Counted from the stretch's first letter, positions 39-55,300 are shown. The stretch is 64,000 nucleotides of DNA from Methanoculleus bourgensis MS2 (GCF_000304355.2 NC_018227.2:2232001-2296000), one strand, 5' to 3'. Notes: generated by a model from the letters alone, not told the origin. Made by a program: numbers and translations.

Positions 39-3000
39 ATGAAGAAGTATTTACTGACATTGTTACTCTTTGCACTCTGCATGCTGGTTACGGCCGCAGG
101 TGCTGCATGGATCGAGGCGCCGGGATCATACCCGAAGGTAGTCGTGCCCGCGGGCTCGACCGGGGTCTTTCCGGTCTCCGTCGGCGGTCTGACAAACGCT
201 GAAGGGGTTTACTTTAACCTGACGTTTGACAACACCCTGTTGTCGGTCGAGAGTGTCTCGGCCAATGACGCAATCCCGGGTTCCAGAGTAACTGCAAACA
301 TCAATAACGAAAGTGGATGGATGCAGGTGGCCGTCACGAACACGGAGGGCATAACCGTTGAGGAACGTACCCCGCTTGTCGATATCACGTTCCGTTCTAC
401 CGGGATCGAGGGAGAGTCGCCACTGCAGTTTGTGGGGACCATGGGATACAACTCGACGTACAGTCAGGGGTTCGAGCTGGAGGAGTTTTATGGTGCATAT
501 AGCGGAACGATCAGGGTTGTTGAATCTCCCTCAACGATCCGGGCCCCCTCCGGCACGCTGGCCTCGGGGCAGTCCAAAACCCTTGCCGTCGGCGTGGACA
601 ATCTCACCGGTGCAAAGCAGATCTGGTTCGAACTGATGTATGACGGATCATACCTCATCATCGATGATATCCAGCCGGCACTGCTGGGGGCAGTGATAAC
701 CGGGGCCTTCGCCAATAACGGCATTCACGAATTTGAACCGACCGCTCTTGAGTCCGTGCCCGAGGAGGTACGCCTGGAATTACAGCAGCATCCCCACATG
801 AACATGATGTGGGTGGAACTGGAGATCCCGGGCGGCCTTACTACTACGGGTTACACCGATGTAGTTGATATCACGTTCCGACCAACCAACCGTACCGGTA
901 CCGGCGATCTCGATTTCTACTACCGTTGTACGTACCAGGATGAAAATGAGTCGACACAACTCTTCGATATTCAGATCCCCGGCCAGATCGTAACCAACGG
1001 CGGCGGCAAGTATCCGGTCCTCGGCGAGTTCCAGGCCCCGTCGGGCACCATCGATGTCGGATCGCAGAAAGTGCTTCCCCTCATGGTCCGATCCCTGGAC
1101 AACGCAGAAGGAGCGTATGTCTGGGCTGGGTGGAACTCTGCCATAATAAATGTCACATCGGTATCCCTGAACGCAACCGCACAGGCTGCCGGCGTGACGC
1201 TTGAGGGGAGTGGCATCCATTCCGATGTGTATGACAACATCTCGACCGGGCGTCTGTATGCCTATGTCGAGAACCTGACGAAACTGAACACGGCGTCATG
1301 GACCCCTCTTCTCGACCTCACGGTGAGGGCAAACGCCAATTCTGGCCGGACCCCGGTGGACATCTGGGGGACTGCATACATAATTCCCCGGGAGAACGTC
1401 TCCATCGTTTACCCGCCCGCTTCGCTTGAGAACGGGCAGATCTCCATCACTGTTCCGGAGAAGGCGGACCTGAGAGGTAACCTTGTCCCCTGGCCCGATT
1501 ACGTGAAGAAGTATGCCGACGGCAGCCTGCATTTCACCCAGACAATGGTCATCGAGAACACCGGCAATAAGGCCGTCACCGAGGATTTCGACATCCGTGG
1601 GACATTCTGCTCGAAAGAGGCAGAATTCCCTGTCTCGGGCGGCATTGCTCCAGGGGAAAACATCACCTATCACGTGACGATGCACGTCAAACCCGACCAC
1701 GAAGGAGGTACACGCATCAGCATGATCGGCGGCCAGGAGCATGAGCGACGGTATGATGTCACCACACGCGGAGATGTCCAGACGGGTAACCACACCATCG
1801 CGCTCCAGATCGATGTCAACGACGTCATCGATGAGATTGATAAGGATAACAACTACGTGGAGGCAGACGTAGTGGTCACCTATCCGGACCTGGTTCCGGT
1901 CTGGAAGATGGAGTATGTCGGTGGACCATCGTCAAGCAACACCACCATCCTTGACACGTCACATGCCCCCGGCACCTGGAAGATCACGTTCGGGGCAGAG
2001 AACATCGGCAAGGTGTTCGCCGACCCGACCACCTTGAATTTCACGGTCGGTGAGGGGGCTCCGACGGTCTACACCGTACCGAAACTGGAGCCGGGCGAGA
2101 ACTGGACGGAGACGATCAGCGTCGACGTCGGCCGTGTGTTCACTACGTACAGTGTCGAGGTCAACGCCAACCGGGCAGAGGCGGAGGAGGACTATGACAA
2201 CAATAGCCTTACTGAATCCATCGGATCCACTGCGGTGACGGTCGTCTTCCCGCCAGTCTACGGCTCGAGCGATGACGATGATGATACTAAGGTAGAAATC
2301 TGGATCACAAACATATCGAGGACGGCGCCCGTTACGGAGTTCAAGCTACCCGTGAAATACGACCCGACGATCTGTTATTACAACGGAACATTTGATGTGC
2401 TCGGTGGAGTCGACGTTGAAAGTTCCTATGGGAGGGTTACGCTCTCCGGGAAGAACCTGGAGTTGCGCGGCGATACTCTAATTGCGACGCTCAAGATGCG
2501 GGCACGTACGGACTCCGGCAGGACGTCGGTCCTTAACTCGTCGAAGAGTGCATACGTAAAGACCGGGAACGCGTACCTCGATCTGGAGATCATCCACGGC
2601 ACGTTCGAACAGAGGAGCACGACCAATGCCTCCGTTGCCGTCTTCGCTCCACGTTCCGGCCCTGCCGGCCAGAACCAGGCGATCTCAGTGACTATCCAGA
2701 ATCTGAAATCAAACAACGTCACCGTCTCCGCAAATCTGACCGCGACAAACGAGACCGCGAGTGAGACTCTGTGGGAGATGTCGGATATCTATCTCACCGG
2801 GCGTGCGAGCAAGACGTTCACTATCGATACGTGGCAGCCGGTTGGGGGCGCCTACACCCTGAACGCGACCATCACCGGGGATAATGTCACAGGGAATAAC
2901 ATTGCTTCGCGGCCCATCGTCATCGATAGTTATGAGTTGAATGTAACTGAACAGAACAAGCGGTACTGGAATGCCTGGTACGGCTATGACAGGTCCGTCC

Positions 3001-5909
3001 TGAGAGACGAACACCTCTGGCTCGGGACGTACTTCACGGCGAACCAGTCGGGCATGGTGGATGCGACCCTTGCCATCACGTACCCCAACGGGACGCCGGA
3101 CGGTGAATCCGCATTTGAATTCCACCACTACTACCCGGCACAAAACCCCGTGTACGCGTACGACTCGGAGTGGAACAGTGTAGCCTGGTACTACGTCACA
3201 CCAAGGCAGCTTGGAGACTTCAATTACAGCATCACGCTTAAGGCACGGGGGGAGAGCGCTTACGTCAACGGCACGATCAAGGTCAGGGAGCCCAATGTCG
3301 ACATCAAGGTGATGAACACAACCCTGGTCACGGACGAATCGTCAAAGACCATGACGTTCCCGGTCTTCAACCGGACTCCATCCGAAGGCAGGAACGTGCA
3401 GATTCTCCTCTCGGCCGGCGCCGATGGCAGGACTCTGCAGGGGCTGGAATCGCTCATCGGGTACCCGCACGGCTGCCCGGAACAGGTGATGAGCCCGGCA
3501 CTTGCGGCGCTCCGCGTGAAGCAGTACTATGAGCAGCGCGGCGCTCTGAACGATGATATTAACAAAACAGTGCGGACGGCGATGCAGAACGCGCTCGGCC
3601 ACATGAACGCAACCGGCTATAACGCCCAGCAGGCTTCCGGCGGATGGGCATGGGGCACGTGGTCAACCCCCTCGATGTTCTATACGTTCTACCCGAACTA
3701 CGTGATCACCGAGTTACTGATGGATAATGATCCCGCGTTCTGGGACGTCGATGCGAGCATGAACGGAATCGACCTTGATGCGAGCGCTAACTGGCTGATC
3801 CAGAAGCAGAAGCGGGAAGGTGTGGCTAACGGGAGCTGGAGCGACTGGGGCTACATATCAAACGATGTCGAGTGGACCGGGTTCATCTCCGAGAACCTCA
3901 AAAACGAGTACCCGTACCTGAACAAGACCATGAAGATAGAGGTGAATGCGTCGCTTGACAGATCCTGCAACTGGCTCCTGACCCACAATTACACGAATGA
4001 GGACACGCAGGCGCTCTCCTATGCGATCCTCGGGCTTGTCGCGATACGCGACCATGGTGGCATCGGGGACGCGGAAGCGATCAACGAAACAGTTGATGAC
4101 CTGAAGGGAGAGCTGCTCAAGAAGAGAGACAGAGTGGGATCGTATTGGGAGGATTCCTACGGATGGAACACCTACGAACCGACAGCAAGCGCAATCCTTG
4201 CCCTCAACAAAGCAGGTATATCCGCTGACGAGTTGTCGGGCGGCATCAGCCACTTGATCGGCAACCGCGCTGGGCGCTCTTACTCCGGCGGGTGGGGCAG
4301 CACGCGCACCAGTGCGGCGGTCATCAACACGCTGACCAATGTCGTGCCGCAGAAGCCCGTGGCCTTCACCGTGGACGCCGAGATCGTGAGAGGAGATGGC
4401 ACATCCGTCTGGTCATGCATGGGTATCGAGTTCAACGAGACCTCGTTCGGCTTCGAACGCACTCTTTCGATTGATGAACTGAACATATTGTACGGATCCA
4501 GTGTGCCGGACGACACTGCAAAAGTCATCATCAGCAATAAGAATGATGCGGCTTCTGATAACCCTGGAAAGCTGAGCGTCTCGATCGACAGTTTCGAACA
4601 GGTCCCGGAGAGCCTCGCAGTCGCGACCATCCCGGACATCTACATCGACCCGATTGCCACCGACTTCAACCTGCAGATTGTTGCCCCGGATCCGGGAACG
4701 TTGAAGGAAGGAGAGTTCCGGGACGTCGGGTTCACCATCAACAACAACCTCGTAGAGCCGCGGGACCAGGGTGTAATGATCATCGAGATCCCGATCAGCA
4801 ACGCGGTAAACTTCACCGGCAACGCTACCGGGGCCGATGCGGCGTTCTACAACGACGGCACCGGACGGAAGAACATCTCGCACATGTACAACGCCACCGA
4901 GAAGAAACTCTACATCTACCCGGGCTCTGACAATGAGTCTGCACCGAGCGTTCTTGCAGGCGAGATAAAGACCTTCTTTGTCCCGCTGACGTTCGGAGCA
5001 TCTGGGAACATCACGGTCGAAGCGCGCGCCTACCCGATGTACAACGACACCTGGATGGCACTCGGCAACAGCAGCACCTATGTGCTGGGCTACGGCAACG
5101 TCACGCTTGCTGCGGTTGACGAGACCACCAATGGACCGGTGGAAGCGGGATTCTACGTGAACGGGCTTTCCGTTGGATCGGGGACGAGCTACACCGACCG
5201 ACTGCTTGAGGGCAAGTACTCTGTCGCAATCTGGAGAGACCCTGTATGGATCAACTCCACGGTGAACGTCGCGCCATCTGAGAGCGTCACCTACACGGCG
5301 CACTTCGCACGTGACAGGTCTGTCCCGTATATCGCGCAGGCGGAGGGCACGGCGGGCGAGATCCAGGTCATGCCCCCGGCGATCGAGGACACCATCAGTG
5401 ATGACAGCCCGAACCACTGGAATGCAGCGACAAAGGCGATGAAGAGTTTCAATGCGAGCATCTCGAGCAGCGGCGGAAGGGCAACATTGGCTGTGGATAT
5501 ACCAAAGGTATCAAGGACCGCGGTAAACGATACAGGAACCTATGAGTTCTCTGTCTATCTAAATGACAATCCAGTGAGTGTCTCAATGTATGATGGTGAA
5601 AACTGGTCCTCGTATGAGTACAGGCCCCGGGGTGAGAGGTTGACAATAAGTGACATTGATACCAGCAAGATCAAGCAGATCAGCATCACATTTACAGGGC
5701 GAGAGTATGGTGATGTCGACAATGACAAGGTTATCGATGTAGCCGACGCTTTCATGATAGTGAAAGCCCGATACAACCAGGTTTCATTTACCGAAAACCA
5801 GTGGTTCTATGCCGATGTGGATAACGACGGGATAGTTGATGTAGCCGACGCCTTCTTATTGGTGAAATGGCGCTTCGATCAGGTTGACCATGATTATCAA
5901 CCTAAATAA
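39..5909 (+). CDS. Secreted cohesin/CARDB/alpha-2-macroglobulin-like thioester protein with C-terminal dockerin
   Basis: About 1956 residues. ATG at 39 is preferred over an in-frame TTG at 30, because GAGG at 26-29 is well spaced from it. The N-terminus is a signal peptide ending near AGAAW. Then come three cohesin-like beta-sandwich modules (roughly residues 24-470), two CARDB-like modules (480-735), a fourth cohesin-like module (738-865), further Ig-like segments, and an alpha-helical toroid-type domain (about 1110-1440). That domain carries GYPHGCPEQ, with Cys1146 and Gln1149 matching the CxEQ thioester of alpha-2-macroglobulins and complement. Residues about 1890-1950 form a type I dockerin with two calcium loops (DVDNDKVIDVAD and DVDNDGIVDVAD). 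Many NxT/S sites suggest glycosylation. The protein is likely extracellular and could bind nucleophiles covalently and dock to a cohesin. The next two genes encode membrane-anchored cohesin-like proteins. Domain calls are from motif reading, not a profile search. Confidence 0.85.
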   Translation: MKKYLLTLLLFALCMLVTAAGAAWIEAPGSYPKVVVPAGSTGVFPVSVGGLTNAEGVYFNLTFDNTLLSVESVSANDAIPGSRVTANINNESGWMQVAVTNTEGITVEERTPLVDITFRSTGIEGESPLQFVGTMGYNSTYSQGFELEEFYGAYSGTIRVVESPSTIRAPSGTLASGQSKTLAVGVDNLTGAKQIWFELMYDGSYLIIDDIQPALLGAVITGAFANNGIHEFEPTALESVPEEVRLELQQHPHMNMMWVELEIPGGLTTTGYTDVVDITFRPTNRTGTGDLDFYYRCTYQDENESTQLFDIQIPGQIVTNGGGKYPVLGEFQAPSGTIDVGSQKVLPLMVRSLDNAEGAYVWAGWNSAIINVTSVSLNATAQAAGVTLEGSGIHSDVYDNISTGRLYAYVENLTKLNTASWTPLLDLTVRANANSGRTPVDIWGTAYIIPRENVSIVYPPASLENGQISITVPEKADLRGNLVPWPDYVKKYADGSLHFTQTMVIENTGNKAVTEDFDIRGTFCSKEAEFPVSGGIAPGENITYHVTMHVKPDHEGGTRISMIGGQEHERRYDVTTRGDVQTGNHTIALQIDVNDVIDEIDKDNNYVEADVVVTYPDLVPVWKMEYVGGPSSSNTTILDTSHAPGTWKITFGAENIGKVFADPTTLNFTVGEGAPTVYTVPKLEPGENWTETISVDVGRVFTTYSVEVNANRAEAEEDYDNNSLTESIGSTAVTVVFPPVYGSSDDDDDTKVEIWITNISRTAPVTEFKLPVKYDPTICYYNGTFDVLGGVDVESSYGRVTLSGKNLELRGDTLIATLKMRARTDSGRTSVLNSSKSAYVKTGNAYLDLEIIHGTFEQRSTTNASVAVFAPRSGPAGQNQAISVTIQNLKSNNVTVSANLTATNETASETLWEMSDIYLTGRASKTFTIDTWQPVGGAYTLNATITGDNVTGNNIASRPIVIDSYELNVTEQNKRYWNAWYGYDRSVLRDEHLWLGTYFTANQSGMVDATLAITYPNGTPDGESAFEFHHYYPAQNPVYAYDSEWNSVAWYYVTPRQLGDFNYSITLKARGESAYVNGTIKVREPNVDIKVMNTTLVTDESSKTMTFPVFNRTPSEGRNVQILLSAGADGRTLQGLESLIGYPHGCPEQVMSPALAALRVKQYYEQRGALNDDINKTVRTAMQNALGHMNATGYNAQQASGGWAWGTWSTPSMFYTFYPNYVITELLMDNDPAFWDVDASMNGIDLDASANWLIQKQKREGVANGSWSDWGYISNDVEWTGFISENLKNEYPYLNKTMKIEVNASLDRSCNWLLTHNYTNEDTQALSYAILGLVAIRDHGGIGDAEAINETVDDLKGELLKKRDRVGSYWEDSYGWNTYEPTASAILALNKAGISADELSGGISHLIGNRAGRSYSGGWGSTRTSAAVINTLTNVVPQKPVAFTVDAEIVRGDGTSVWSCMGIEFNETSFGFERTLSIDELNILYGSSVPDDTAKVIISNKNDAASDNPGKLSVSIDSFEQVPESLAVATIPDIYIDPIATDFNLQIVAPDPGTLKEGEFRDVGFTINNNLVEPRDQGVMIIEIPISNAVNFTGNATGADAAFYNDGTGRKNISHMYNATEKKLYIYPGSDNESAPSVLAGEIKTFFVPLTFGASGNITVEARAYPMYNDTWMALGNSSTYVLGYGNVTLAAVDETTNGPVEAGFYVNGLSVGSGTSYTDRLLEGKYSVAIWRDPVWINSTVNVAPSESVTYTAHFARDRSVPYIAQAEGTAGEIQVMPPAIEDTISDDSPNHWNAATKAMKSFNASISSSGGRATLAVDIPKVSRTAVNDTGTYEFSVYLNDNPVSVSMYDGENWSSYEYRPRGERLTISDIDTSKIKQISITFTGREYGDVDNDKVIDVADAFMIVKARYNQVSFTENQWFYADVDNDGIVDVADAFLLVKWRFDQVDHDYQPK

Positions 5910-5918
5910 GAGGGAAAT

Positions 5919-6701
5919 ATGAGATCTATATTTTTCTTTTTCCTTGCAATATCTCTCTTGGTTGGCGTATCATCAGCTAGCTCTATTTATCTTGAAGAAG
6001 ATAGCGGAGAATATTATCTATCTCTAATATCCGACCGGCCATGTAAGATTGGTGCATTTTATATTCAGCTCAATTACACCTCTGGAACTACTATTGAATC
6101 TGTTGAGGGTATGGATACATTTGGGACAGTTGTAGATATAGACAACGAGTTTGGCGTAACGAAGATCGGAGGATTCGCCATAGAAGAACAAAGTGCAAGT
6201 ATGTCGATTCGCATTGCACGAGTCTCCTTCAAGGGCGAGAATGATTTTGAAGTTATTGTTCGAGAGCTTTACGATTACGATGACGTAAAACCAATTCTCG
6301 TTGACAATTATGTCCTGGATATTGTGCCAACTCCAACCCCGGTGGCGTTACCAGAGTATCAGCCGGATTATAGATATGTCTCTCCTGGACAGGGCGAAGT
6401 GACTTATGACCAGTCATCTCTGCCCTTCCCTACAGAGCCCCATGGGGATGTGAGAAAATCCCTGGACCCTGCATTACTGGATGAGGAGCAACCGGCAGAG
6501 GCAGCCGGCATTGTGAGAACCGCAGACCCTACTCCAATACCTGCATCACCGAGTGATGTATCGCACAATGAGATGAAGCAACCAAACACTCCTGTGAGTC
6601 AAAAAACTCCAATGAGTATTGTTACACCAATATTTTCGTTAATGATCGTATTATTTATCTATTATGAAAGAAAATCGTTATCTATTACGAGGAGGCGTTA
6701 A
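5919..6701 (+). CDS. Membrane-anchored single-cohesin-like protein
   Basis: A 260-residue protein starting 9 bases after the thioester protein, with an AGAGG ribosome site just upstream. It has an N-terminal signal peptide (RSIFFFFLAISLLVGVSS) and one cohesin-like module (about residues 22-135, with a beta-strand pattern like that in the flanking genes). A low-complexity Pro/Thr-rich linker follows (about 140-225), then a C-terminal membrane segment (IVTPIFSLMIVLFIYY) and a basic tail. This fits a cell-surface anchor whose cohesin could receive the dockerin of the upstream protein. Its DNA is clearly more AT-rich than the flanking genes, as is the start of the next gene, hinting at a different origin for this stretch. 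The cohesin assignment is moderate, since it rests on fold-like pattern and context. Confidence 0.7.
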   Translation: MRSIFFFFLAISLLVGVSSASSIYLEEDSGEYYLSLISDRPCKIGAFYIQLNYTSGTTIESVEGMDTFGTVVDIDNEFGVTKIGGFAIEEQSASMSIRIARVSFKGENDFEVIVRELYDYDDVKPILVDNYVLDIVPTPTPVALPEYQPDYRYVSPGQGEVTYDQSSLPFPTEPHGDVRKSLDPALLDEEQPAEAAGIVRTADPTPIPASPSDVSHNEMKQPNTPVSQKTPMSIVTPIFSLMIVLFIYYERKSLSITRRR

Positions 6702-6704
6702 AGA

Positions 6705-9700
6705 ATGAAAAGTAGGCATGGAAGACAACTAGCCATGTTTATGGTACTGCTGTCACTTCTTTGTGCGGGTGTAGTAGCACAAGAAGTTGAAATTAGCAGT
6801 GTATCCAATGTTAAGATGAACACAACTGCAAATCTGGATCTTACAATTCAGCACAGCAGTAAAGACCTTGGTACTGTAGATATTACTTTAAAGTACGATC
6901 CTTCTGTTATGAAAGTAACCCGTTTTAACCTTAACTCCGATCTGTGGGCATCTCTCGGAGGCACAGTTCAACCGGGACTTATAGGAATCGCTGTATATGG
7001 GTCTGATGGAGTTGCTGCAGCTCCTGTCAATGCCCAATCACCGGTGTCCATTGGCAGTTTTGTTGTCGAAAGCATGTTCAACGATGGCAGCCAGACACCG
7101 CTTGAACTAGTTTTAACTACAGTCACGGATTATGATGGTAGTAAAATTACTGGTGAGTTTGCTGGTGGCGTTAAAAACGGTTCATTCTCGACACTCGATG
7201 AAACTCCCCCCACAATCACTATCGACTACCCTCGTGACACTGCCACAGTGTCGCAGGATATCATGGTGAATGCAACCATCACTGATGTCGGTGGTGTCAA
7301 TCCTGATTCGATCAAGGTATATGTGGGCAACACTGCAGTTAACTTTACCAAAAAATTAATTCCGCAGGGTTTCATTATAAATGCCACGCATACGGTTCAG
7401 AATCTGGGCCAGCACGTGATCTGCGTGGAGGCGTCGGACAAATCGGGCCGTTCAAACAACTCTTCCATAACTGTCGATGTCCAGCTATCAGGCATAACTA
7501 TCACGTATCCCACGGCCAATGATCAGTTCATAAACAACTCTCGCCCTGCGATCAGTGCGAGCTTTGTTGAGGTCGATAATACTACAGTCAGGATGTTCCT
7601 TGATGGTAAGGATGTTACAGGTAACTGTACGATCGATGAACAGCTAGGTACAATAACCCTCGGATATGGAACAGATTGTCTGGATGATAAAAAGTACGAG
7701 GTTGTGGTAAGCGGAACGAGTTCTCTCACGCATTCACCCGTTTCAAGCAACGCGAGTTTCGTTATTGATACCAAACCACCCACCGTCACGATCACCAAGA
7801 TCATCGACGGTGACGGCGACGGGTACAAGGAGGCAGGAGAGTATCTATACGTCTACTACACTGCAGATGATGCCAACCTCGGCGATGTATGGTTCGATTA
7901 CGGGTGCAACACCACAGGCGAGAAAAACGGGTTCCTCGTGGCGAACATCACAGCCGGCAACAAGGAAGAGGTCGCCTACGCAGTTGATCGTGCCGGCAAC
8001 GTCGGCAATAGTACGCCGGTCCACATCTACAACAACAACCTTGTGTACTTCAACGACTCATCGCTCGGATCCTTTGCCGGCCTTGATCTGACAAAGACCG
8101 CGCTCTACGACGTCTTCTCGACCGCCAGGGCCTTCACCCTGTACGGCCCAGACGCGTGGATGACGGCGCCGAAGATCGGTGAGCTCAAGAAGTCTATCAC
8201 CGGCGGCAGCAACGTCATCATTGACTGCCGCAAGAACGACCCGATCCGCGCAGGCTCCCTGCCGTCATCCGTTGGTATCTACACGACGCCCACCGGCACC
8301 CTTGACTTTGCCGTCAAAGTGCCGAACGTCACCAACGCAACCCTGATGATTGCAAGGGCAAACAGCACGCTCATCGACCAGCTGATCAAGAACCCGTCAA
8401 AGGACGCGCTGACACCGGGTATGCTCAAGGATCTTCTTGATTCGAAGAAGATAGTGCTCTACGGTAAAGAGGGCTATGCTATTGTCAACGTCGACACGAG
8501 GGATGTTAAAGTCAACAAAGGTGGATCTATCACGGTGGATCTGGACGATATGTCAGAGACCATCCGCATCAACTACGTTGACCTGAGCACGAGCACCGGA
8601 TTCAACACCAAGAATATGCCGTATGGGTCAACCCCGCTCCAGATCAGCGACCTCGGTCAGGGAGAGTACGCCCTTCTCGCGGTCTGCATGGACGACGACC
8701 GCTTTGCGATCGTCGCGGGGACGACCTTCGAGGTCACCAACCAGGCAGGGCTGCTCTCGACGAGCGCCGGAACCTACACCATCGGGCAGCCCGTGGTTGT
8801 GAACTCGGCACAGAAAGGAGAGATCCTCTCGGCAGTGGTGCTCAACAGCAAAGCGACCTACACCGGCAACGTGACGCTGGACTTCTCCACGCTCGGGAAA
8901 GAGACGTTCAAGTCTGCATACCTCCTTGCTGATGGCAACCAGACCGTCGTGAAGCCTTATGGCAAGGCAAACGTCTGGCTGACGAAAGGATACGGCAACA
9001 CGAGCGCAAAGAAGAACACGGCAAGCGTCAGCGTCCCCACGCACGATCTGCTCCCCGGTGAGTATCGCGTCTACATGTTCCTTGAGGATAATGGCAACGT
9101 GACGTCGTACAACGAGGCCATCATCACCCTCACGACCGTGACCCCCACGCCCACCCCGTACACCCCCGGCAGAAGCAGTGGCGGTGGCAGCGGCTCCTCC
9201 TACACCTCCTACACCGGGACGGGCACCCTGAAGGTCGGCAGTTCGGGCACCGTGCTGCGGTCCATCATGGTGAACGCTGAGGATAAAGTCGGGAGCCTCT
9301 TCGTTCCGATCGGCATAAAAGCGCTCGACAAAGACGGCAACCCGCTCACCGGGATCACCCTCACCCCCATCAGCAGCGACGAGATGCCCGCTGTCCCGTC
9401 CGGAGCAGCGTTCAAGTTCGCCGGCTACGTCTACGAGGCCAGCCCCGAAGGTGCCACATTCGACCCAGGCATCACGCTCACGTTCGAGATCCCCGAGGAC
9501 GCCTGGAGGACCCTGGACCCCGAGAACAACGACTTCACAGTGAAGTGGTACAACAAGGAGACCGGCCAGTGGGAGGACGTCCCGACGACCGTCTATAAGA
9601 GCACAAGGAGCGTTGATGCGGAGATCACTCACTTCAGCATCTTCGCGCTCTTCACCGAGCCGGCAACAACAACCACACCGACCGAGACAGAGACCCCGGC

Positions 9701-9836
9701 TACGTCGACAGAACCGACGACACCGCCGGCCGGAGAAGCCCCCGCTGAAGGACTGCCCATGACGATGATCCTTGCGATCTTCGCGGTGCTCGTCATCATC
9801 ATAGCGGCAGGATACTTCTTCATGGTGCGGAAGTAA
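6705..9836 (+). CDS. Cohesin-like and Ig-like surface protein with C-terminal membrane anchor
   Basis: A 1043-residue protein. ATG at 6705 is preceded by GGAGG at 6691-6695 inside the end of the previous gene, so translation is probably coupled. After a signal peptide there is a cohesin-like module (about residues 27-165). Two Ig-like modules follow (about 170-250 and 260-355; each opens with a TI.YP strand), then a long beta-rich region. A PTPTP linker with a Gly/Ser patch is followed by a compact domain typical of methanogen surface proteins (about 845-985), a Thr/Pro stalk and a final transmembrane helix (MTMILAIFAVLVIIIAAGYF) with a short basic end. It probably serves as a surface scaffold. 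Codon and base composition change along the gene: the first 900 bases are AT-richer and the rest is GC-rich like the neighbours. Ligand unknown. Confidence 0.75.
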   Translation: MKSRHGRQLAMFMVLLSLLCAGVVAQEVEISSVSNVKMNTTANLDLTIQHSSKDLGTVDITLKYDPSVMKVTRFNLNSDLWASLGGTVQPGLIGIAVYGSDGVAAAPVNAQSPVSIGSFVVESMFNDGSQTPLELVLTTVTDYDGSKITGEFAGGVKNGSFSTLDETPPTITIDYPRDTATVSQDIMVNATITDVGGVNPDSIKVYVGNTAVNFTKKLIPQGFIINATHTVQNLGQHVICVEASDKSGRSNNSSITVDVQLSGITITYPTANDQFINNSRPAISASFVEVDNTTVRMFLDGKDVTGNCTIDEQLGTITLGYGTDCLDDKKYEVVVSGTSSLTHSPVSSNASFVIDTKPPTVTITKIIDGDGDGYKEAGEYLYVYYTADDANLGDVWFDYGCNTTGEKNGFLVANITAGNKEEVAYAVDRAGNVGNSTPVHIYNNNLVYFNDSSLGSFAGLDLTKTALYDVFSTARAFTLYGPDAWMTAPKIGELKKSITGGSNVIIDCRKNDPIRAGSLPSSVGIYTTPTGTLDFAVKVPNVTNATLMIARANSTLIDQLIKNPSKDALTPGMLKDLLDSKKIVLYGKEGYAIVNVDTRDVKVNKGGSITVDLDDMSETIRINYVDLSTSTGFNTKNMPYGSTPLQISDLGQGEYALLAVCMDDDRFAIVAGTTFEVTNQAGLLSTSAGTYTIGQPVVVNSAQKGEILSAVVLNSKATYTGNVTLDFSTLGKETFKSAYLLADGNQTVVKPYGKANVWLTKGYGNTSAKKNTASVSVPTHDLLPGEYRVYMFLEDNGNVTSYNEAIITLTTVTPTPTPYTPGRSSGGGSGSSYTSYTGTGTLKVGSSGTVLRSIMVNAEDKVGSLFVPIGIKALDKDGNPLTGITLTPISSDEMPAVPSGAAFKFAGYVYEASPEGATFDPGITLTFEIPEDAWRTLDPENNDFTVKWYNKETGQWEDVPTTVYKSTRSVDAEITHFSIFALFTEPATTTTPTETETPATSTEPTTPPAGEAPAEGLPMTMILAIFAVLVIIIAAGYFFMVRK

Positions 9837-49199: not shown

Positions 49200-49322
49200 A
49201 TGAAAGCGCATGTGAACGTGATTACGGGGGTACTTATGCTACTTTCCCAGAAGACGGAACTGAGAGGGCGGCAGGGTACCGGGACCGAGGCCGAGTCGCC
49301 CGGAATAGGCAACCGGGCGTGA
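49200..49322 (+). CDS. Possible small leader ORF (40 residues)
   Basis: ATG at 49200 follows AAAGAGG at a good distance, and the stop at 49320-49322 overlaps the GTG that opens the giant gene's frame. The peptide (MKAHVNVITGVLMLLSQK and on) has no recognised match. It may be a leader peptide that couples translation, or the frame may be accidental. Confidence 0.3.
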   Translation: MKAHVNVITGVLMLLSQKTELRGRQGTGTEAESPGIGNRA

Positions 49323-49327
49323 TTGTG

Positions 49328-52300
49328 ATGGATAGATCGAGAGTAATAGCAGGGGCCATCGTCATCCTCCTTGCCGTCGCCGTGCTGGCAGTGCCGGTGG
49401 CGGCGGAAGAGTATGTGTTTGTGACGAAGTGGGGGGAATATGGTACGGGAGAGGGGTTCAAGGATCCCTTTGACATAGCTATAGACACTGCCGGCCACAT
49501 CTATATTACTGAAACCGATGCCAACCACATCCTGCAGCGCATCCTGAAGCTCGACAGCTCCATGAACTTCATTACCAAATGGGGCTCATACGGGACTGGC
49601 AATGGGCAGTTTAATGGGCCCCAGGGTATTGCCGTGAATGCTGCTGGTAACGTCTATGTCGCTGATACATACAACCACCGCATCCAGAAATTCGATTCCA
49701 GTGGTAACCTCCTTACCAAGTGGGGTTCATGGGGGTCCGGTGACGGGCAGTTTAGTTATCCCGATAGCGTCGCCGTGGACGCTGCCGGGAACGTCTATGT
49801 CTCCGATACCAACAATGGCCGTATCCAGAAGTTCGACTCTGATGGCACTTTCCTTGGGAAATGGGGATCATGGGGATCTGGCGATGGACAGTTAAGGTTC
49901 TCACAAGATCTGGTTGTGGATGCTGCAGGCAACATATATGTGGCCGAATATGGTAACCATCGCATCCAGAAATTCGATTCCAATGGTAATTTTCTCTGGA
50001 AAAAGGGTTCATCGGGGTCCGGCGATGGGCAGTTTCTCTCTCCTTATGGTATTACCGTGGACGCTGCTGGAAACGTCTATGTCGCTGATACTTGGAACCA
50101 CCGCATCCAGAAATTCGATTCCAGTGGCAATTTCCTGACGAAATGGGGTTCACGGGGGTCTGGTAATGGACAATTTAGTGAGCCCTTTGGCGTTGCCGTG
50201 GACAGTGCTGGCAACGTGTATGTAACTGAGAGAGGTAACGACCGCGTCCAGATGTTCGCCCCGGCCTCCGCCCTGACCGTCACCGGGATCGTTCCCGCTT
50301 CCGGACTCAACACAGGGAGCGTGAGCATCACCGATCTCTCCGGCACCGGGTTTGCCAACGGTGCGACCGTGAACCTCACCCGGACCGGAGAGACGAACAT
50401 CGTGGCAACCGATGTCTCCGTCCTTTCTTCGACGCAGATCACCTGCACCCTTGACCTGACCGGCGCCGTTGCAGGATCCTGGAACGTCGTAGTGACGAAT
50501 CCTGACAATCAGTTCGCAACTCTTACCGATGGATTTACCGTGAATGCAGAGAACCGTGCCCCGGTCGCGGAAGACGACACCTACACCACAGATGAAGATA
50601 CGCTTCTCACCATCTCCGCTCCCGGAGTGCTGGCGAACGATAACGACCCCGACGGGGATGCCCTCACCGCAGTCCTGGTCGACGACGTTTCGAACGGTAC
50701 ATTAACCCTGAACGCTGACGGCTCGTTCACGTACCTGCCCAATACAGGATTCTCTGATATAGACACGTTCACCTATACGGCGAACGATGGAACTCAGAGT
50801 TCTAACGTTGCTACAGTATCCATAAACGTCAATCCGGCTTCGGCAGTTTTAACATCGATTGTGGTAACCCCGGTACAACCAATCCTTGAAATTGGTGGAA
50901 CCCAGCAATTCACGGCAACCGGCTATGATCAGTATGGGACTCCCCTACCCACCGGTGAGATCGTCTGGTCCAGCACGAATACCACGGTGGGAACAATCGA
51001 TGCGACAGGCCTCTTCACTGCAACCGCAGAAGGATCCACGACAGTCACCGCCACTGCGGGGGAGGTTTCCGGGACGGCTGAAGTGACGGTTAACCCCGCC
51101 CTGACCGTCACCGGGATCGTTCCCGCCTCCGGACCTAACACAGGGAACGTGAGCATCACCAATCTCTCCGGCACCGGGTTTGTTGACGGCGCGACCGTGA
51201 ACCTCACCCGGACCGGAGAGACGAACATCGTGGCAACGGATGTTTCCGTTCTCTCTTCGACGCAGATCACCTGTACGCTGGACCTGACCGGCGCCGCTGC
51301 GGGGTCCTGGAACGTGGTGGTGACAAATCCAGATGGACGGTACGATATCCTGTCAGATGGGTTTGCCGTCGTGGCGGCGAGTGAGATTGTAACGTTCAAC
51401 GATCCCAACCTCGAGGCTACAGTGCGTGGTGCGCTGGGTAAGCCCGTGGGAGATATTACGGCCGATGACATGGCCACATTTATTACTCTAGGTGCAGATT
51501 GGAGAGGAATCCGTGATCTATCGGGGCTGGAGTATGCGGTCAACCTGCAGCATCTCTATCTCCAACAGAACCGCCAGATCAGCGACCTCGGCCCCCTTGC
51601 CGGCCTGACAGACCTGCAGACTCTTGACCTTTGGAACAACCAGATCAGCGACCTCAGCCCCCTCGCCGGCCTGACAAACCTGTCTGTGCTCCTCCTTGGT
51701 TCCAACCAGATCAGCGATATCGGCCCCCTTGCTGGCCTGACAGACCTGCAGCGTCTTCACCTTTATGACAACCAGATCCGCGACATCGGCCCCCTTGCCG
51801 GCCTGACAAACCTGTGGGAACTTCGCCTTTATAACAACCAGATCCGCGACATCGGCCCGCTGGTTGCCAACAGCGGGCTCGGCTCAGGCGACGAGGTGTA
51901 CCTTCAGTACAACTACCTCGACCTCACCCCGGGGTCCGCTGATATGAATGACATCCAAACACTGCAAAGCAGAGGAGTGTACGTCGCCTATGAACCGCAA
52001 AACCCGGTGCCGACCTATACACTCGACCTCGCCGTGAATCCTGAGGGCGGCGGCACCGTCACCGGAGCCGGGACCTACAAAGCTGGCGATACCGTTCCCA
52101 TTACAGCGACACCCAATGAAGGCTGGGAGTTTGTCAACTGGACAAATGAGACAGGAGCGACAGTAAGTTCCGAGCCAAACTTCGACTATCCCATGCCCGA
52201 AGGCGACGTGGCGCTCACTGCCAACTTTGAAGGCGAAGCCATCACCTACACGCTCGGCCTGGCAGTGAATCCTGCTGGTAGTGGTACCGTCACCGGAGCC

Positions 52301-55300
52301 GGCACCTACGCAGCGGGAGACACAGTCTCGGTCACGGCCACACCGAATGATGGCTACACCTTTGTCAACTGGACGGACGAAACAGATGTTACAGTGAGTA
52401 CCGCAGCGAGTTTCGACTACACCATGCCTGACGGTGACGTGACCCTCACCGCTAACTTCGCGGCGATCACCTACACCCTTGACCTTGCAGTGAATCCTGA
52501 AGGCAGCGGTACGGCCACCGGGGCCGGCACCTACGCAGCTGGAGCAACAGTTCCCATCACAGCGACACCCAATGAAGGCTGGGAGTTCGCCAACTGGACG
52601 GATGGGACAGGAGCGACAGTTAGTTCCGAGGCGACCTTCGACTATACCATGCCAGCCCAGGAAACGGCACTCACCGCCAATTTCGAGCCGGCACCTCCCG
52701 TCCTTGCTCGCATTGAGGTATCACCGGCCGAAGCAACCCTCGAGGTCGGGGCGACCCGGCAATTCACGGCAACCGGGTATGACCAGTACGGGAATCCCCT
52801 ATCTGTCGGTGAGATCGTCTGGTCCAGCACGAATGAGGCCGTCGGGACAATCGATGCGTCCGGTATGTTTACCGCGCTGGCTGCCGGCAGTACAGAGCTC
52901 GTTGCCGAAGCAAACGGAATCTCAGGCAAGGCGAACGTCACGGTTACTCCTGCAGCTCCTGTCCTAACATCCATCGCGGTAACGCCGGAATCCCCTGCGC
53001 TGGAGATTGGAACCACTCAGCAGTTTACTGCGACCTGCTACGACCAATATGGCCAGACGATGCCTGACATGGCCGTCTCATGGTCCAGCAGCAATACTTC
53101 AGTGGGAACCATCGAGTCAAACGGGATGTTCACAGCGCTTACCGCCGGGTCCACCACGGTGACGGCGTCTGCTGCGGGCGTTTCTGGACAGACGGTGGCG
53201 ACCGTGAATCCGGCTGCCCCCGTAGTAACCCGTATTGCAGTATCGCCCCCATCCGTCACCCTGGATATCGGTGATACGCAAGCGTTTGTGGCCACCTGCT
53301 ACGATCAGTATGAGAATGAGATGCCCGGGACCAGTGTATCCTGGGCAAGTGATAGTACAACCGTAGGAACCATCGACGCGACAGGCCTCTTCACTGCAAC
53401 CGCGGAAGGATCCACGACCGTCACCGCCACTGCGGGGGATGTCTCCGGGACGGCAGAAGTGAGAGTTAATCCCGCCCTGACCGTCACCGGGATTGTTCCC
53501 GCCTCCGGGCCTAACACCGGCCCTGTGAGCATCACCGACCTCTCTGGCACCGGTTTTGCTGACGGCGCAACCGTGAAACTCACCCGTGACGGTGAGGCAG
53601 ATATCGTGGCAACAGATGTTGCCGTCCTCTCCCCGACGCAGATCACCTGCACGCTGGACCTGACCGGCGCCGCTGTGGGTACATGGAACGTGGTGGTGAC
53701 GAATCCTGATGAGCAGTACGATATCCTGTCGGATGGGTTTGCCGTCGTGGCGGCGAGCGAGGTTGTAACGTTCAACGATCCCAACCTCGAGGCTGCAGTG
53801 CGCCAGGAACTGAGCAAACCCAAGGGAGACATTACCGCTGACGATATGGCCACGCTTACTAGGCTCTCTGCAGCAGGTAGAGGAATCCGTGATCTGTCGG
53901 GACTGGAGTATGCGGTCAACCTGCAGACTCTTTATATCTCCAACAACCAGATCAGCGATCTGAGCCCCCTTGCCGGACTGACCAACCTGCAGACTCTTTG
54001 GCTTCAGGATAACCAGGTTAGCGACCTCAGCCCCCTCGCCGGCCTGACCAACCTGCAGCGTCTTTGGCTCAACCAAAACCAAATCCGCGATGTCAGTCCC
54101 CTCGCCGGCCTGACAAATCTGCGTGAGCTTCTCCTCGCTGTCAACCAGATCAGCGATCTGAGCCCCCTCGCCGGACTGACCAACCTGGGGTATGTTCAGC
54201 TATATCGCAACCAGATCAGCGATCTGAGCCCCCTCGCCGGACTGACCAACCTGGGGTATGTTCAGCTATATCGCAACCAGATCAGCGATCTGAGCCCCCT
54301 CGCCGGACTGACCAACCTGTATTTTCTTGATATCTCCTACAACCAGATCAGCGATCTGAGCCCCCTTGCTAGCCTGACCAACCTGTATTTTCTTGATATC
54401 TCCTACAACCAGATCAGCGATATCAGCCCTCTTGCCGGTCTCACGCGCCTGAGTCGTCTTTCTTTAGATAATAACCAGATCAGCGATATCAGCCCCCTCG
54501 CCGGCCTGATCAATCTGTATGTTCTAAATCTCAATTACAACCAGATCCGCGATATCAGCCCCCTGGTTGCCAATAGTGGGCTCGCGGGGGACGATGTGTA
54601 CCTTCAGTATAACTACCTCGACCTCACCCCAGGGTCTGCTGCGATGAATGACATCCAGACGCTGCAAAGCAGGGGAGTGTACGTTGTCTATGAGCCGCAA
54701 CATGAAGTAACGAAATACACGCTTGACCTCGCCGTGAATCCTGAAGGCAGCGGCACTGTCACCGGCGCCGGTACCTACGCTGCTGGATATACCGTTTCCA
54801 TCACAGCGACACCCAATGAAGGCTGGGAGTTCGCCAACTGGACGGATGGGACAGGAGCGACAGTAAGTTCCGAGGCTACCTTTGACTATCCCATGCCCGC
54901 CCGGGACACGGCGCTCATCGCCAATTTCGAGCCAGCACCTCCCGTTCTCACCCGCATTGATGTATCACCGGTCGAAGCAGCCCTTGAGGTCGGGGAGACC
55001 CGGCAATTCACGGCAACCGGGTATGACCAGTATGGGAATACTATACCCACCGGTGAGATCGTCTGGTCCAGCACGAATGAGGCCGTCGGGACAATCGATG
55101 CGTCCGGTATGTTTACCGCGCTGGCTGCCGGCAGTACAGAGCTCGTTGCCGAAGCAAACGGAATCTCAGGCAAGGCGAACGTCACGGTTACTCCTGCAGC
55201 TCCGGTCTTAACATCTATCGCCGTAACGCCAGAATCCCCGGCGCTGGAGGTCGGAACCACTCAGCAGTTTACCGCGACCTGCTACGACCAATATGGCCAG

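What the first reader, a model, noticed from the sequence alone, without database searches (positions are those of the whole stretch)
39..9836. Archaeal thioester protein with cohesins and a dockerin next to cohesin-like anchors
One secreted protein has cohesin-like modules, an intact CxEQ thioester motif (GYPHGCPEQ, Cys1146/Gln1149) and a C-terminal dockerin with both calcium loops. The next two genes encode cohesin-like proteins with C-terminal membrane helices. Thioester proteins of the alpha-2-macroglobulin type trap proteases or attach covalently to targets, and cohesin-dockerin pairs assemble complexes. Together they suggest a surface capture or defence complex, which to my knowledge is undescribed. 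Cohesins and dockerins are known in archaea, but not with this enzyme-like part.
Basis: partly seen in the sequence, partly recalled or inferred. Interest (0 to 1): 0.9.

Follow-up and report, generated by a model that had tools for sequence, protein, structure and literature searches.

The report
Complement-like protein on archaeal protein scaffold
A methanogenic archaeon carries a secreted protein whose core matches animal complement and alpha-2-macroglobulin, plugged by cellulosome-type couplings into membrane anchors and usually encoded beside a docking protease, and the part of the locus that encodes one of these couplings differs strongly between close relatives, which suggests a private, strain-specific surface capture or defence device.

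Summary
Protein A (39-5909) has four cohesin-type modules, CARDB, a complement/alpha-2-macroglobulin core (MG-CUB-TED-CUB-MG8 order) with Cys1146/Gln1149, and a C-terminal dockerin. B and C are membrane-anchored proteins with N-terminal cohesins. All 22 Methanomicrobiales homologs examined keep CxEQ, a C-terminal dockerin and the gene order A-B-C; 20 of 22 neighbourhoods also hold a subtilisin-family (S8) protease with its own dockerin, directly upstream in most. Related arrangements occur in three more distant genomes of the phylum.

First, the protease. Second, A's dockerin and C's first cohesin (B's cohesin less so) form a hypervariable, recombining cassette: two single-contig genomes 85% identical in A's core share only 27% in the dockerin and 29% in C's cohesin. 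The two repeats of A's dockerin always resemble each other more than those of other species; the protease dockerins are conserved and asymmetric.

Archaeal CxEQ proteins are already published (Makarova 2021, PMC8416519), so 'undescribed' holds only for the cohesin-dockerin-protease complex and the cassette. Likeliest function: covalent capture of targets on the cell surface, with A tethered through a private code. No biochemistry was possible.

The parts
39..5909 (+). Protein A, 1956 aa: secreted thioester protein with cohesins, CARDB and C-terminal dockerin
   Evidence: ORF; Pfam; 22 homologs
135..446 (+). cohesin 1 of A (aa 33-136)
   Evidence: Pfam PF00963 29.2 bits, cut-off 24.1; 43% identical to the cohesin of the upstream single-cohesin gene
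546..1013 (+). cohesin-type module 2 of A (about aa 170-325)
   Evidence: hhalign 97.7% to cohesin reference; controls 0.1-0.3%
1041..1433 (+). cohesin-type module 3 of A (about aa 335-465)
   Evidence: hhalign 95.9%
1962..2213 (+). CARDB domain (aa 642-725, best of two stretches)
   Evidence: Pfam PF07705 30.6 bits
2334..2663 (+). cohesin-type module 4 of A (about aa 766-875); the short homologs have a cohesin at their N-terminus, ahead of the Ig/MG/TED part
   Evidence: hhalign 92.7%; short-clade N-terminus 98.9%
2937..3416 (+). MG7-like domain and first half of CUB-like domain (aa 967-1126)
   Evidence: AlphaFold2 model and Foldseek to C3/CD109/TEP1/A2M
3435..4340 (+). TED, alpha-helical thioester domain (aa 1133-1434)
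   Evidence: Pfam TED_complement; profile match to CD109, C3, A2M, TEP1; model helices
3474..3485 (+). thioester motif CPEQ, Cys1146 and Gln1149
   Evidence: identical C, E, Q in 22/22; aligned with GCGEQ of CD109
4365..5120 (+). second CUB half and MG8-like domain (aa 1443-1694)
   Evidence: AlphaFold2 model and Foldseek
5706..5861 (+). dockerin of A (aa 1890-1941), two calcium loops, symmetric repeats
   Evidence: Pfam PF00404 31.7 bits; repeat concordance in 21/21 proteins
5919..6701 (+). Protein B: signal peptide, one cohesin, linker, C-terminal membrane helix
   Evidence: AlphaFold2, Foldseek top hits cohesins, hhalign 95.5%
5979..6293 (+). cohesin domain of B (aa 21-125)
6705..9836 (+). 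Protein C: N-terminal cohesin, bacterial Ig-like domains, C-terminal membrane helix
   Evidence: Pfam Big_7 above its cut-off, Big_13 below it; hydrophobic C-terminal segment near aa 1016
6777..7199 (+). N-terminal cohesin of C (aa 25-165)
   Evidence: hhalign 96.2%; 21.6 bits by Pfam, below cut-off
5487..7200 (+). hypervariable cassette: last domain and dockerin of A, all of B, N-terminal cohesin of C
   Evidence: DNA identity to nearest relative G017 drops from about 0.8 to 0.27-0.5 here; same zone variable in other pairs

Best explanation
A protease-linked covalent capture complex tethered on the archaeal surface. A is a thioester protein whose core has the domain order of complement C3/TEP/alpha-2-macroglobulin from MG7 to MG8. 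Its C-terminal dockerin plugs into the membrane-anchored cohesin of C, of B, or of both, and keeps A on the producing cell. S8 proteases and other secreted proteins carrying the conserved dockerin type plug into the conserved cohesins (of A, of the upstream anchor, or of the protease itself). When a docked or foreign protease cuts or unlocks the core, the Cys1146-Gln1149 thioester reacts with a nearby amine or hydroxyl and fixes the target to the complex; defence against hostile proteases, cells or viruses is the favoured use. The tethering coupling is a private code: dockerin and cognate cohesins lie next to each other in the DNA and are replaced by recombination, so that secreted A returns to its own cell rather than to neighbours. 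Shown by sequence and fold comparison: domain content, gene order, protease neighbour, invariance of CxEQ, concerted dockerin repeats, cassette variability. Inferred: that the thioester forms, who binds whom, the trigger, the target, and the defence role.
For: TED and CxEQ. Fold of core, C3/C5/CD109/TEP1/A2M first, E 4e-23 to 1e-19. B is a cohesin. Cohesins in A and C. A-B-C contiguous and same strand in 22/22, gaps under 100 bases. S8 protease with intact D/H/S motifs and C-terminal dockerin in 20/22 neighbourhoods, 18 of them one or two genes upstream. Same set in a more distant genome (G255) and a related set in two others (G303, G312). Dockerin repeats of A: within-protein identity 0.71, between-protein 0.32, own repeat best in 21/21, permutation p 5e-5; protease dockerin repeats 0.79-0.81 between species. 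Cassette. In G061 the homolog of a neighbouring protein that elsewhere ends in a membrane helix ends in a dockerin instead, as if docking replaces anchoring.
Against: No binding, cleavage or thioester chemistry was measured. No bait region or MG1-MG6 ring was recognised, so activation is unclear. AlphaFold2 confidence of the core is moderate (mean pLDDT 71, pTM 0.42) and TM-scores of whole-chain matches are low (0.2-0.36). Co-variation of A-dockerin, B and C-cohesin could reflect physical linkage alone. In G037 and G092 no S8 protease was found nearby, and in G000 it lies eleven ORFs away on the other strand. The defence role rests on analogy.
Confidence: 0.5

Rival explanations
1. Adhesion: the scaffolded thioester fixes the methanogen covalently to partner cells or surfaces (syntrophic bacteria, sludge granules), like the thioester adhesins of Gram-positive bacteria.
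For: Cohesin-dockerin proteins are proposed for ANME-bacteria contact (PMC9012536; PMC10553843). The cluster is full of surface domains (PKD, SBBP beta-propeller, NHL-like repeats, CARDB) on dockerin proteins in the own genome. A complement-type minimal core without a trap ring suits adhesion as well as capture.
Against: It does not by itself explain the S8 protease in 20/22 neighbourhoods. The core is of C3/A2M type, not the Gram-positive thioester fold. Patchy presence (21 of 135 genomes of the class) fits either.
Confidence: 0.22
2. Protease inhibitor: A traps attacking or its own S8 proteases in the way of alpha-2-macroglobulin.
For: Fold matches include A2M, A2ML1 and E. coli A2M; the protease neighbour could be the regulated enzyme.
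Against: No MG1-MG6 ring or bait region was recognised; the short homologs have only a cohesin, an Ig-like domain and an MG7-like domain before TED.
Confidence: 0.13
3. Extracellular protein-digesting complex: a scaffold gathers subtilisins and holds substrate proteins by the thioester, as a cellulosome gathers cellulases.
For: A bears four cohesins and a dockerin, as a scaffoldin does; several dockerin proteins with one shared dockerin type cluster upstream.
Against: These methanogens are not known to live on protein (own knowledge). A single-use covalent bond is a poor way to feed an enzyme. The hypervariable tether is not expected for housekeeping digestion.
Confidence: 0.08
4. Cassette variability is neutral: fast drift and linked inheritance of loosely constrained domains, with no private code. 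(This concerns the cassette only and can be true together with any of the functions above.)
For: The three modules are neighbours in DNA, so one recombination event moves all. Mantel tests do not fully remove shared history. B's cohesin is about as variable as other cohesins in the cluster (mean 0.52 against 0.54).
Against: The two dockerin repeats of one protein change together in 21/21 proteins, which drift does not give. Protease dockerins of the same genomes stay 0.71 identical while A dockerins are 0.41. Boundaries coincide with domain ends.
Confidence: 0.25

Closest known systems
Archaeal alpha-2-macroglobulin/TEP homologs of Makarova et al. 2021 (PMC8416519)
   Same: Secreted archaeal proteins with Ig-type domains, TED and intact CxEQ, in neighbourhoods with surface proteins and endoproteases; Halobacteria and Methanomicrobia
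   Different: [quoted passage not shown] here the C-terminal dockerin zone is the variable, recombining part. Its supplementary tables could not be read, so this very protein may be listed there.
Complement C3 / insect TEP1 / CD109 / alpha-2-macroglobulin superfamily
   Same: MG-CUB-TED-CUB-MG8 order by fold search; CxEQ; a His of the short clade aligned with that of the CD109 VIHSEL motif
   Different: No MG1-MG6 ring, anaphylatoxin or bait region recognised; fused to cohesins and a dockerin
Archaeal and ANME cohesin-dockerin surface systems (PMC9012536, citing Peer 2009 and Bayer 1999)
   Same: Scaffoldin-like proteins with a dockerin and several cohesins, surface anchoring
   Different: No thioester protein reported there; no private dockerin code described in the passages read
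Clostridial cellulosome
   Same: Scaffoldin with cohesins and its own dockerin, docked enzymes, separate anchoring proteins with cohesins, two dockerin specificities
   Different: Cargo is S8 proteases and beta-propeller/PKD proteins, not carbohydrases; the scaffold bears a TED
VARTIG loci of Thermococcales (PMC8416519)
   Same: Large Ig-type surface protein followed by membrane proteins, diversity created by recombination between strains
   Different: VARTIG lacks TED, and no cohesin or dockerin is reported; here the variable part is a coupling between complex members

Membership tests
Thioester-containing protein / alpha-2-macroglobulin superfamily | TED domain above curated cut-off | tested here: met
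   PF07678 35.0 bits against cut-off 22
Thioester-containing protein / alpha-2-macroglobulin superfamily | CxEQ motif with Cys and Gln, conserved | tested here: met
   22/22 homologs
Thioester-containing protein / alpha-2-macroglobulin superfamily | MG7-CUB-TED-CUB-MG8 order | tested here: met
   Fold search, alignments over 730-990 columns with C3, C5, CD109, TEP1, A2M; moderate model confidence
Thioester-containing protein / alpha-2-macroglobulin superfamily | MG1-MG6 ring with bait or activation region | tested here: inconclusive
   No MG1-MG6 Pfam match in A; the short homologs have too little room before TED; N-terminal half not folded here
Thioester-containing protein / alpha-2-macroglobulin superfamily | thioester buried at the TED-MG8 interface and chemically reactive | not testable with these tools
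   No model coordinates; no biochemistry
Cohesin-dockerin system | dockerin with two calcium loops | tested here: met
   PF00404 31.7 bits; loop residues read in the sequence
Cohesin-dockerin system | cohesin modules in A, B and C | tested here: met
   Pfam for A module 1; Foldseek for B; hhalign for the others with negative controls
Cohesin-dockerin system | binding between the dockerin and named cohesins | not testable with these tools
   Only co-variation was measured
Cellulosome | carbohydrate-active enzymes as docked cargo | tested here: not met
   Dockerin proteins near A are S8 proteases, SBBP/PKD and NHL/kelch-like proteins
Known anti-phage defence system (PADLOC) | match of A, B or C to a PADLOC model | tested here: not met
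   No match for A, B, C; the S8 proteases match subtilase and, weakly, IetS models, as generic subtilisins would

The most novel reading that the evidence does not exclude
A complement-like archaeal immune or kind-recognition device in which a protease-activated thioester protein is held on its own cell by a private dockerin-cohesin code, and in which dockerin and cognate cohesins are exchanged together by recombination between strains and species, so that each lineage keeps its own lock and key.
Probability: 0.3. Interest if true: 0.92.

Novelty: new variant of a known kind. Interest (0 to 1): 0.74.

Why it matters
If true, a complement-type thioester core, a subtilisin and a scaffoldin-type docking system form one surface complex in methanogens, which bears on where complement-like immunity comes from and what archaeal thioester proteins do. 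The hypervariable dockerin/cohesin cassette gives a natural series of about twenty lock-and-key pairs whose cross-reactivity can be measured directly, and would show diversifying selection acting on an assembly interface rather than on a target-binding site.

Tried and rejected
PDB search by sequence with B found nothing; fold search did. Pfam gave no cohesin for B, C or the short-clade N-termini; profile-profile comparison did. The genome-contig scan found one close relative only. No relative in viral contigs, so the genes do not look virus-borne. PHROGs no match. Promoter and terminator scans were at chance level, and the sigma-70 model does not suit archaea. B as sole partner of A's dockerin was considered and weakened: G010 and G013 share 88% of B's cohesin but only 46% of the dockerin and 35% of C's cohesin, and with C's cohesin controlled the B signal falls to r 0.20, p 0.04 over all genomes, not significant in the long clade, although still r 0.66 in the short clade. 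The Methanosarcina-like TEDs with GCGEQNM motifs were set aside as the bacterial type. Supplementary tables of PMC8416519 could not be read (no look-ups allowed); Peer 2009 is not held.

Full report
WHERE IT IS. The window is bases 2232001-2296000 of a 2,789,774-base single contig. The nearest named relative is Methanomicrobiales archaeon HGW-Methanomicrobiales-2 (66% identity over the queried part). The order is therefore taken as Methanomicrobiales; from memory the genome size resembles Methanoculleus bourgensis, which was not verified. Genomes are cited below by their handles (G000 = own).

A (39-5909) has Pfam matches above curated cut-offs for cohesin, CARDB, TED_complement and Dockerin_1, and GYPHGCPEQ at Cys1146/Gln1149. 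The genome has this one TED, three cohesin matches, all within about 8 kb, and seven dockerins, six of them between 2209 and 2238 kb. So the finding is the 3' end of a dockerin/cohesin cluster that begins upstream of the window.

THE CORE IS OF COMPLEMENT TYPE. A profile of 21 homologs hits CD109 over its whole TED with GCGEQ aligned to the motif (E 2e-9), and C3, A2M and TEP1 more weakly. It also hits squalene-hopene cyclases, which share the alpha/alpha barrel. AlphaFold2 of aa 940-1885 (mean pLDDT 71) puts a helix right after Cys1146, with beta domains before and after the helical domain. The best fold matches listed are complement C3 and C5, CD109, TEP1, A2ML1, A2M and E. coli A2M, E 4e-23 to 1e-19, over most of the chain. 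Whole-chain TM-scores are low, so domain placement is uncertain. The 14 short homologs have an invariant Cys-His (VCHxW) aligned to the VIHSEL His of CD109; the long clade, including the window's protein, has no His there. From knowledge of C3 and A2M that would mean hydroxyl-preferring against amine-preferring chemistry; this is inference.

THE COUPLINGS. Profile-profile comparison to a cohesin reference gives A module 2 97.7%, module 3 95.9%, module 4 92.7%, short-clade N-terminus 98.9%, C N-terminus 96.2%, B 95.5%; CARDB, MG and PEGA controls give 0.1-0.3%. B's predicted fold is a beta sandwich (pLDDT above 90) whose best PDB matches are cohesins, including the one from Archaeoglobus fulgidus. 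B and C both end in a membrane helix.

CONSERVATION. In 22 Methanomicrobiales genomes every homolog has CxEQ and a dockerin tail, and A, B and C follow each other on one strand. The system is patchy: 21 of 135 good genomes of the class. Long homologs (about 1700-2000 aa, 8 genomes) and short ones (about 1280 aa, 14 genomes) differ by an N-terminal cohesin-CARDB half. In G092 a 920-aa cohesin-CARDB-cohesin-dockerin protein stands directly upstream of a short A, so long A looks like a fusion of the two. Outside the order, G255 has S8 protease with dockerin, A, B and C; G303 and G312 have the TED protein followed by a dockerin protein and a membrane-anchored or PGF-CTERM protein, the latter a near-threshold Pfam cohesin in G312.

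THE PROTEASE. In 20 of 22 neighbourhoods there is a subtilisin-family protease with intact D, H and S motifs and a C-terminal dockerin; in 18 it lies one or two genes upstream of A on the same strand. In most short-clade genomes it is about 1770 aa and bears its own cohesin too. The own genome has one eleven ORFs upstream on the other strand.

THE CASSETTE. Homologs similar in the core differ sharply in the dockerin of A and the first cohesin of C. G049 and G079, both single-contig genomes, share 85% of the core and 78% of C's body, but 27% of the dockerin, 44% of B's cohesin and 29% of C's cohesin; DNA identity falls from about 0.87 to 0.37-0.55 at the dockerin and returns to 0.84 after C's cohesin. 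G010 and G011 show 98-100% DNA identity on both sides of a 38-66% stretch with the same limits; these are draft genomes, so mosaic assembly cannot be excluded. G064's cassette resembles G077 of another family rather than G041 of its own genus. Of 52 pairs with core identity at least 55%, the dockerin is lower than the core in 47, C's cohesin in 50, B's cohesin in 38.

INTERPRETING IT. The two repeats of A's dockerin agree within each protein (mean 0.71) far more than between proteins (0.32); own repeat is the best match in 21 of 21, permutation p 5e-5. Protease dockerins of the same genomes are conserved between species (0.79-0.81) and unlike between repeats (0.16). Mean identities in 12 short-clade species: protease dockerin 0.71, A N-terminal cohesin 0.54, protease cohesin 0.54, B cohesin 0.52, A dockerin 0.41, C cohesin 0.37. 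So the variable pair is A's dockerin and C's cohesin; B is less clear. Partial Mantel tests agree, but linkage and shared ancestry are not fully removed and these p-values should be read as descriptive. The simplest reading is two couplings: a conserved one for protease and other cargo, and a private one that ties A to its own membrane anchors.

WHAT IS KNOWN. Makarova et al. 2021 (PMC8416519) described archaeal CxEQ TED proteins, their varied architectures, neighbouring endoproteases, and a possible immune role, and saw no shuffling at their C-termini. ANME papers describe archaeal scaffoldin-like proteins and dockerins in cell contact. No paper in the searched open library holds both 'macroglobulin' and 'dockerin' or 'Methanoculleus' and 'macroglobulin'. 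Subscription journals are largely missing, so novelty is relative to that library.

VERDICT. Observation confirmed; interpretation partly supported. New to this analysis: the protease partner, the extra cohesins, the presence beyond Methanomicrobiales, and the recombining dockerin/cohesin cassette. Function remains inferred.

Noticed in passing
L012 2524-9297 (genome 2198.5-2205.3 kb, upstream of the window): MoxR-type ATPase, DUF58, Ig-like and DUF1616 genes lie next to the cluster; homologs of the DUF1616 and DUF58 genes sit near the module in several other genomes, and DUF1616 also in G303.
   Followed up: partly
L014 1966-4608 (genome 1816.97-1819.61 kb): The genome's only dockerin outside the cluster is on an 880-aa protein with CARDB-like repeats, next to a close paralogue that ends earlier.
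   Followed up: no
window 49319-57607: 2762-aa surface protein with NHL repeats, many Big_2 and leucine-rich repeats and a PKD domain.
   Followed up: no
L080 3346-4140 and homologs (cluster c3): A conserved neighbouring protein ends in a membrane helix in most genomes but in a dockerin in G061, as if docking can replace membrane anchoring.
   Followed up: partly
G010 against G028, A nt about 1660-3260: The TED-to-MG8 region of A is also mosaic: 60-90% identity inside otherwise near-identical genes, so recombination (or mosaic assembly) is not confined to the dockerin cassette.
   Followed up: no
L012-L013 (dockerin proteins upstream of A): Five upstream dockerin proteins share one near-identical dockerin type (VDIGDAAKIAY..VGKI), different from the dockerin of A.
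   Followed up: partly
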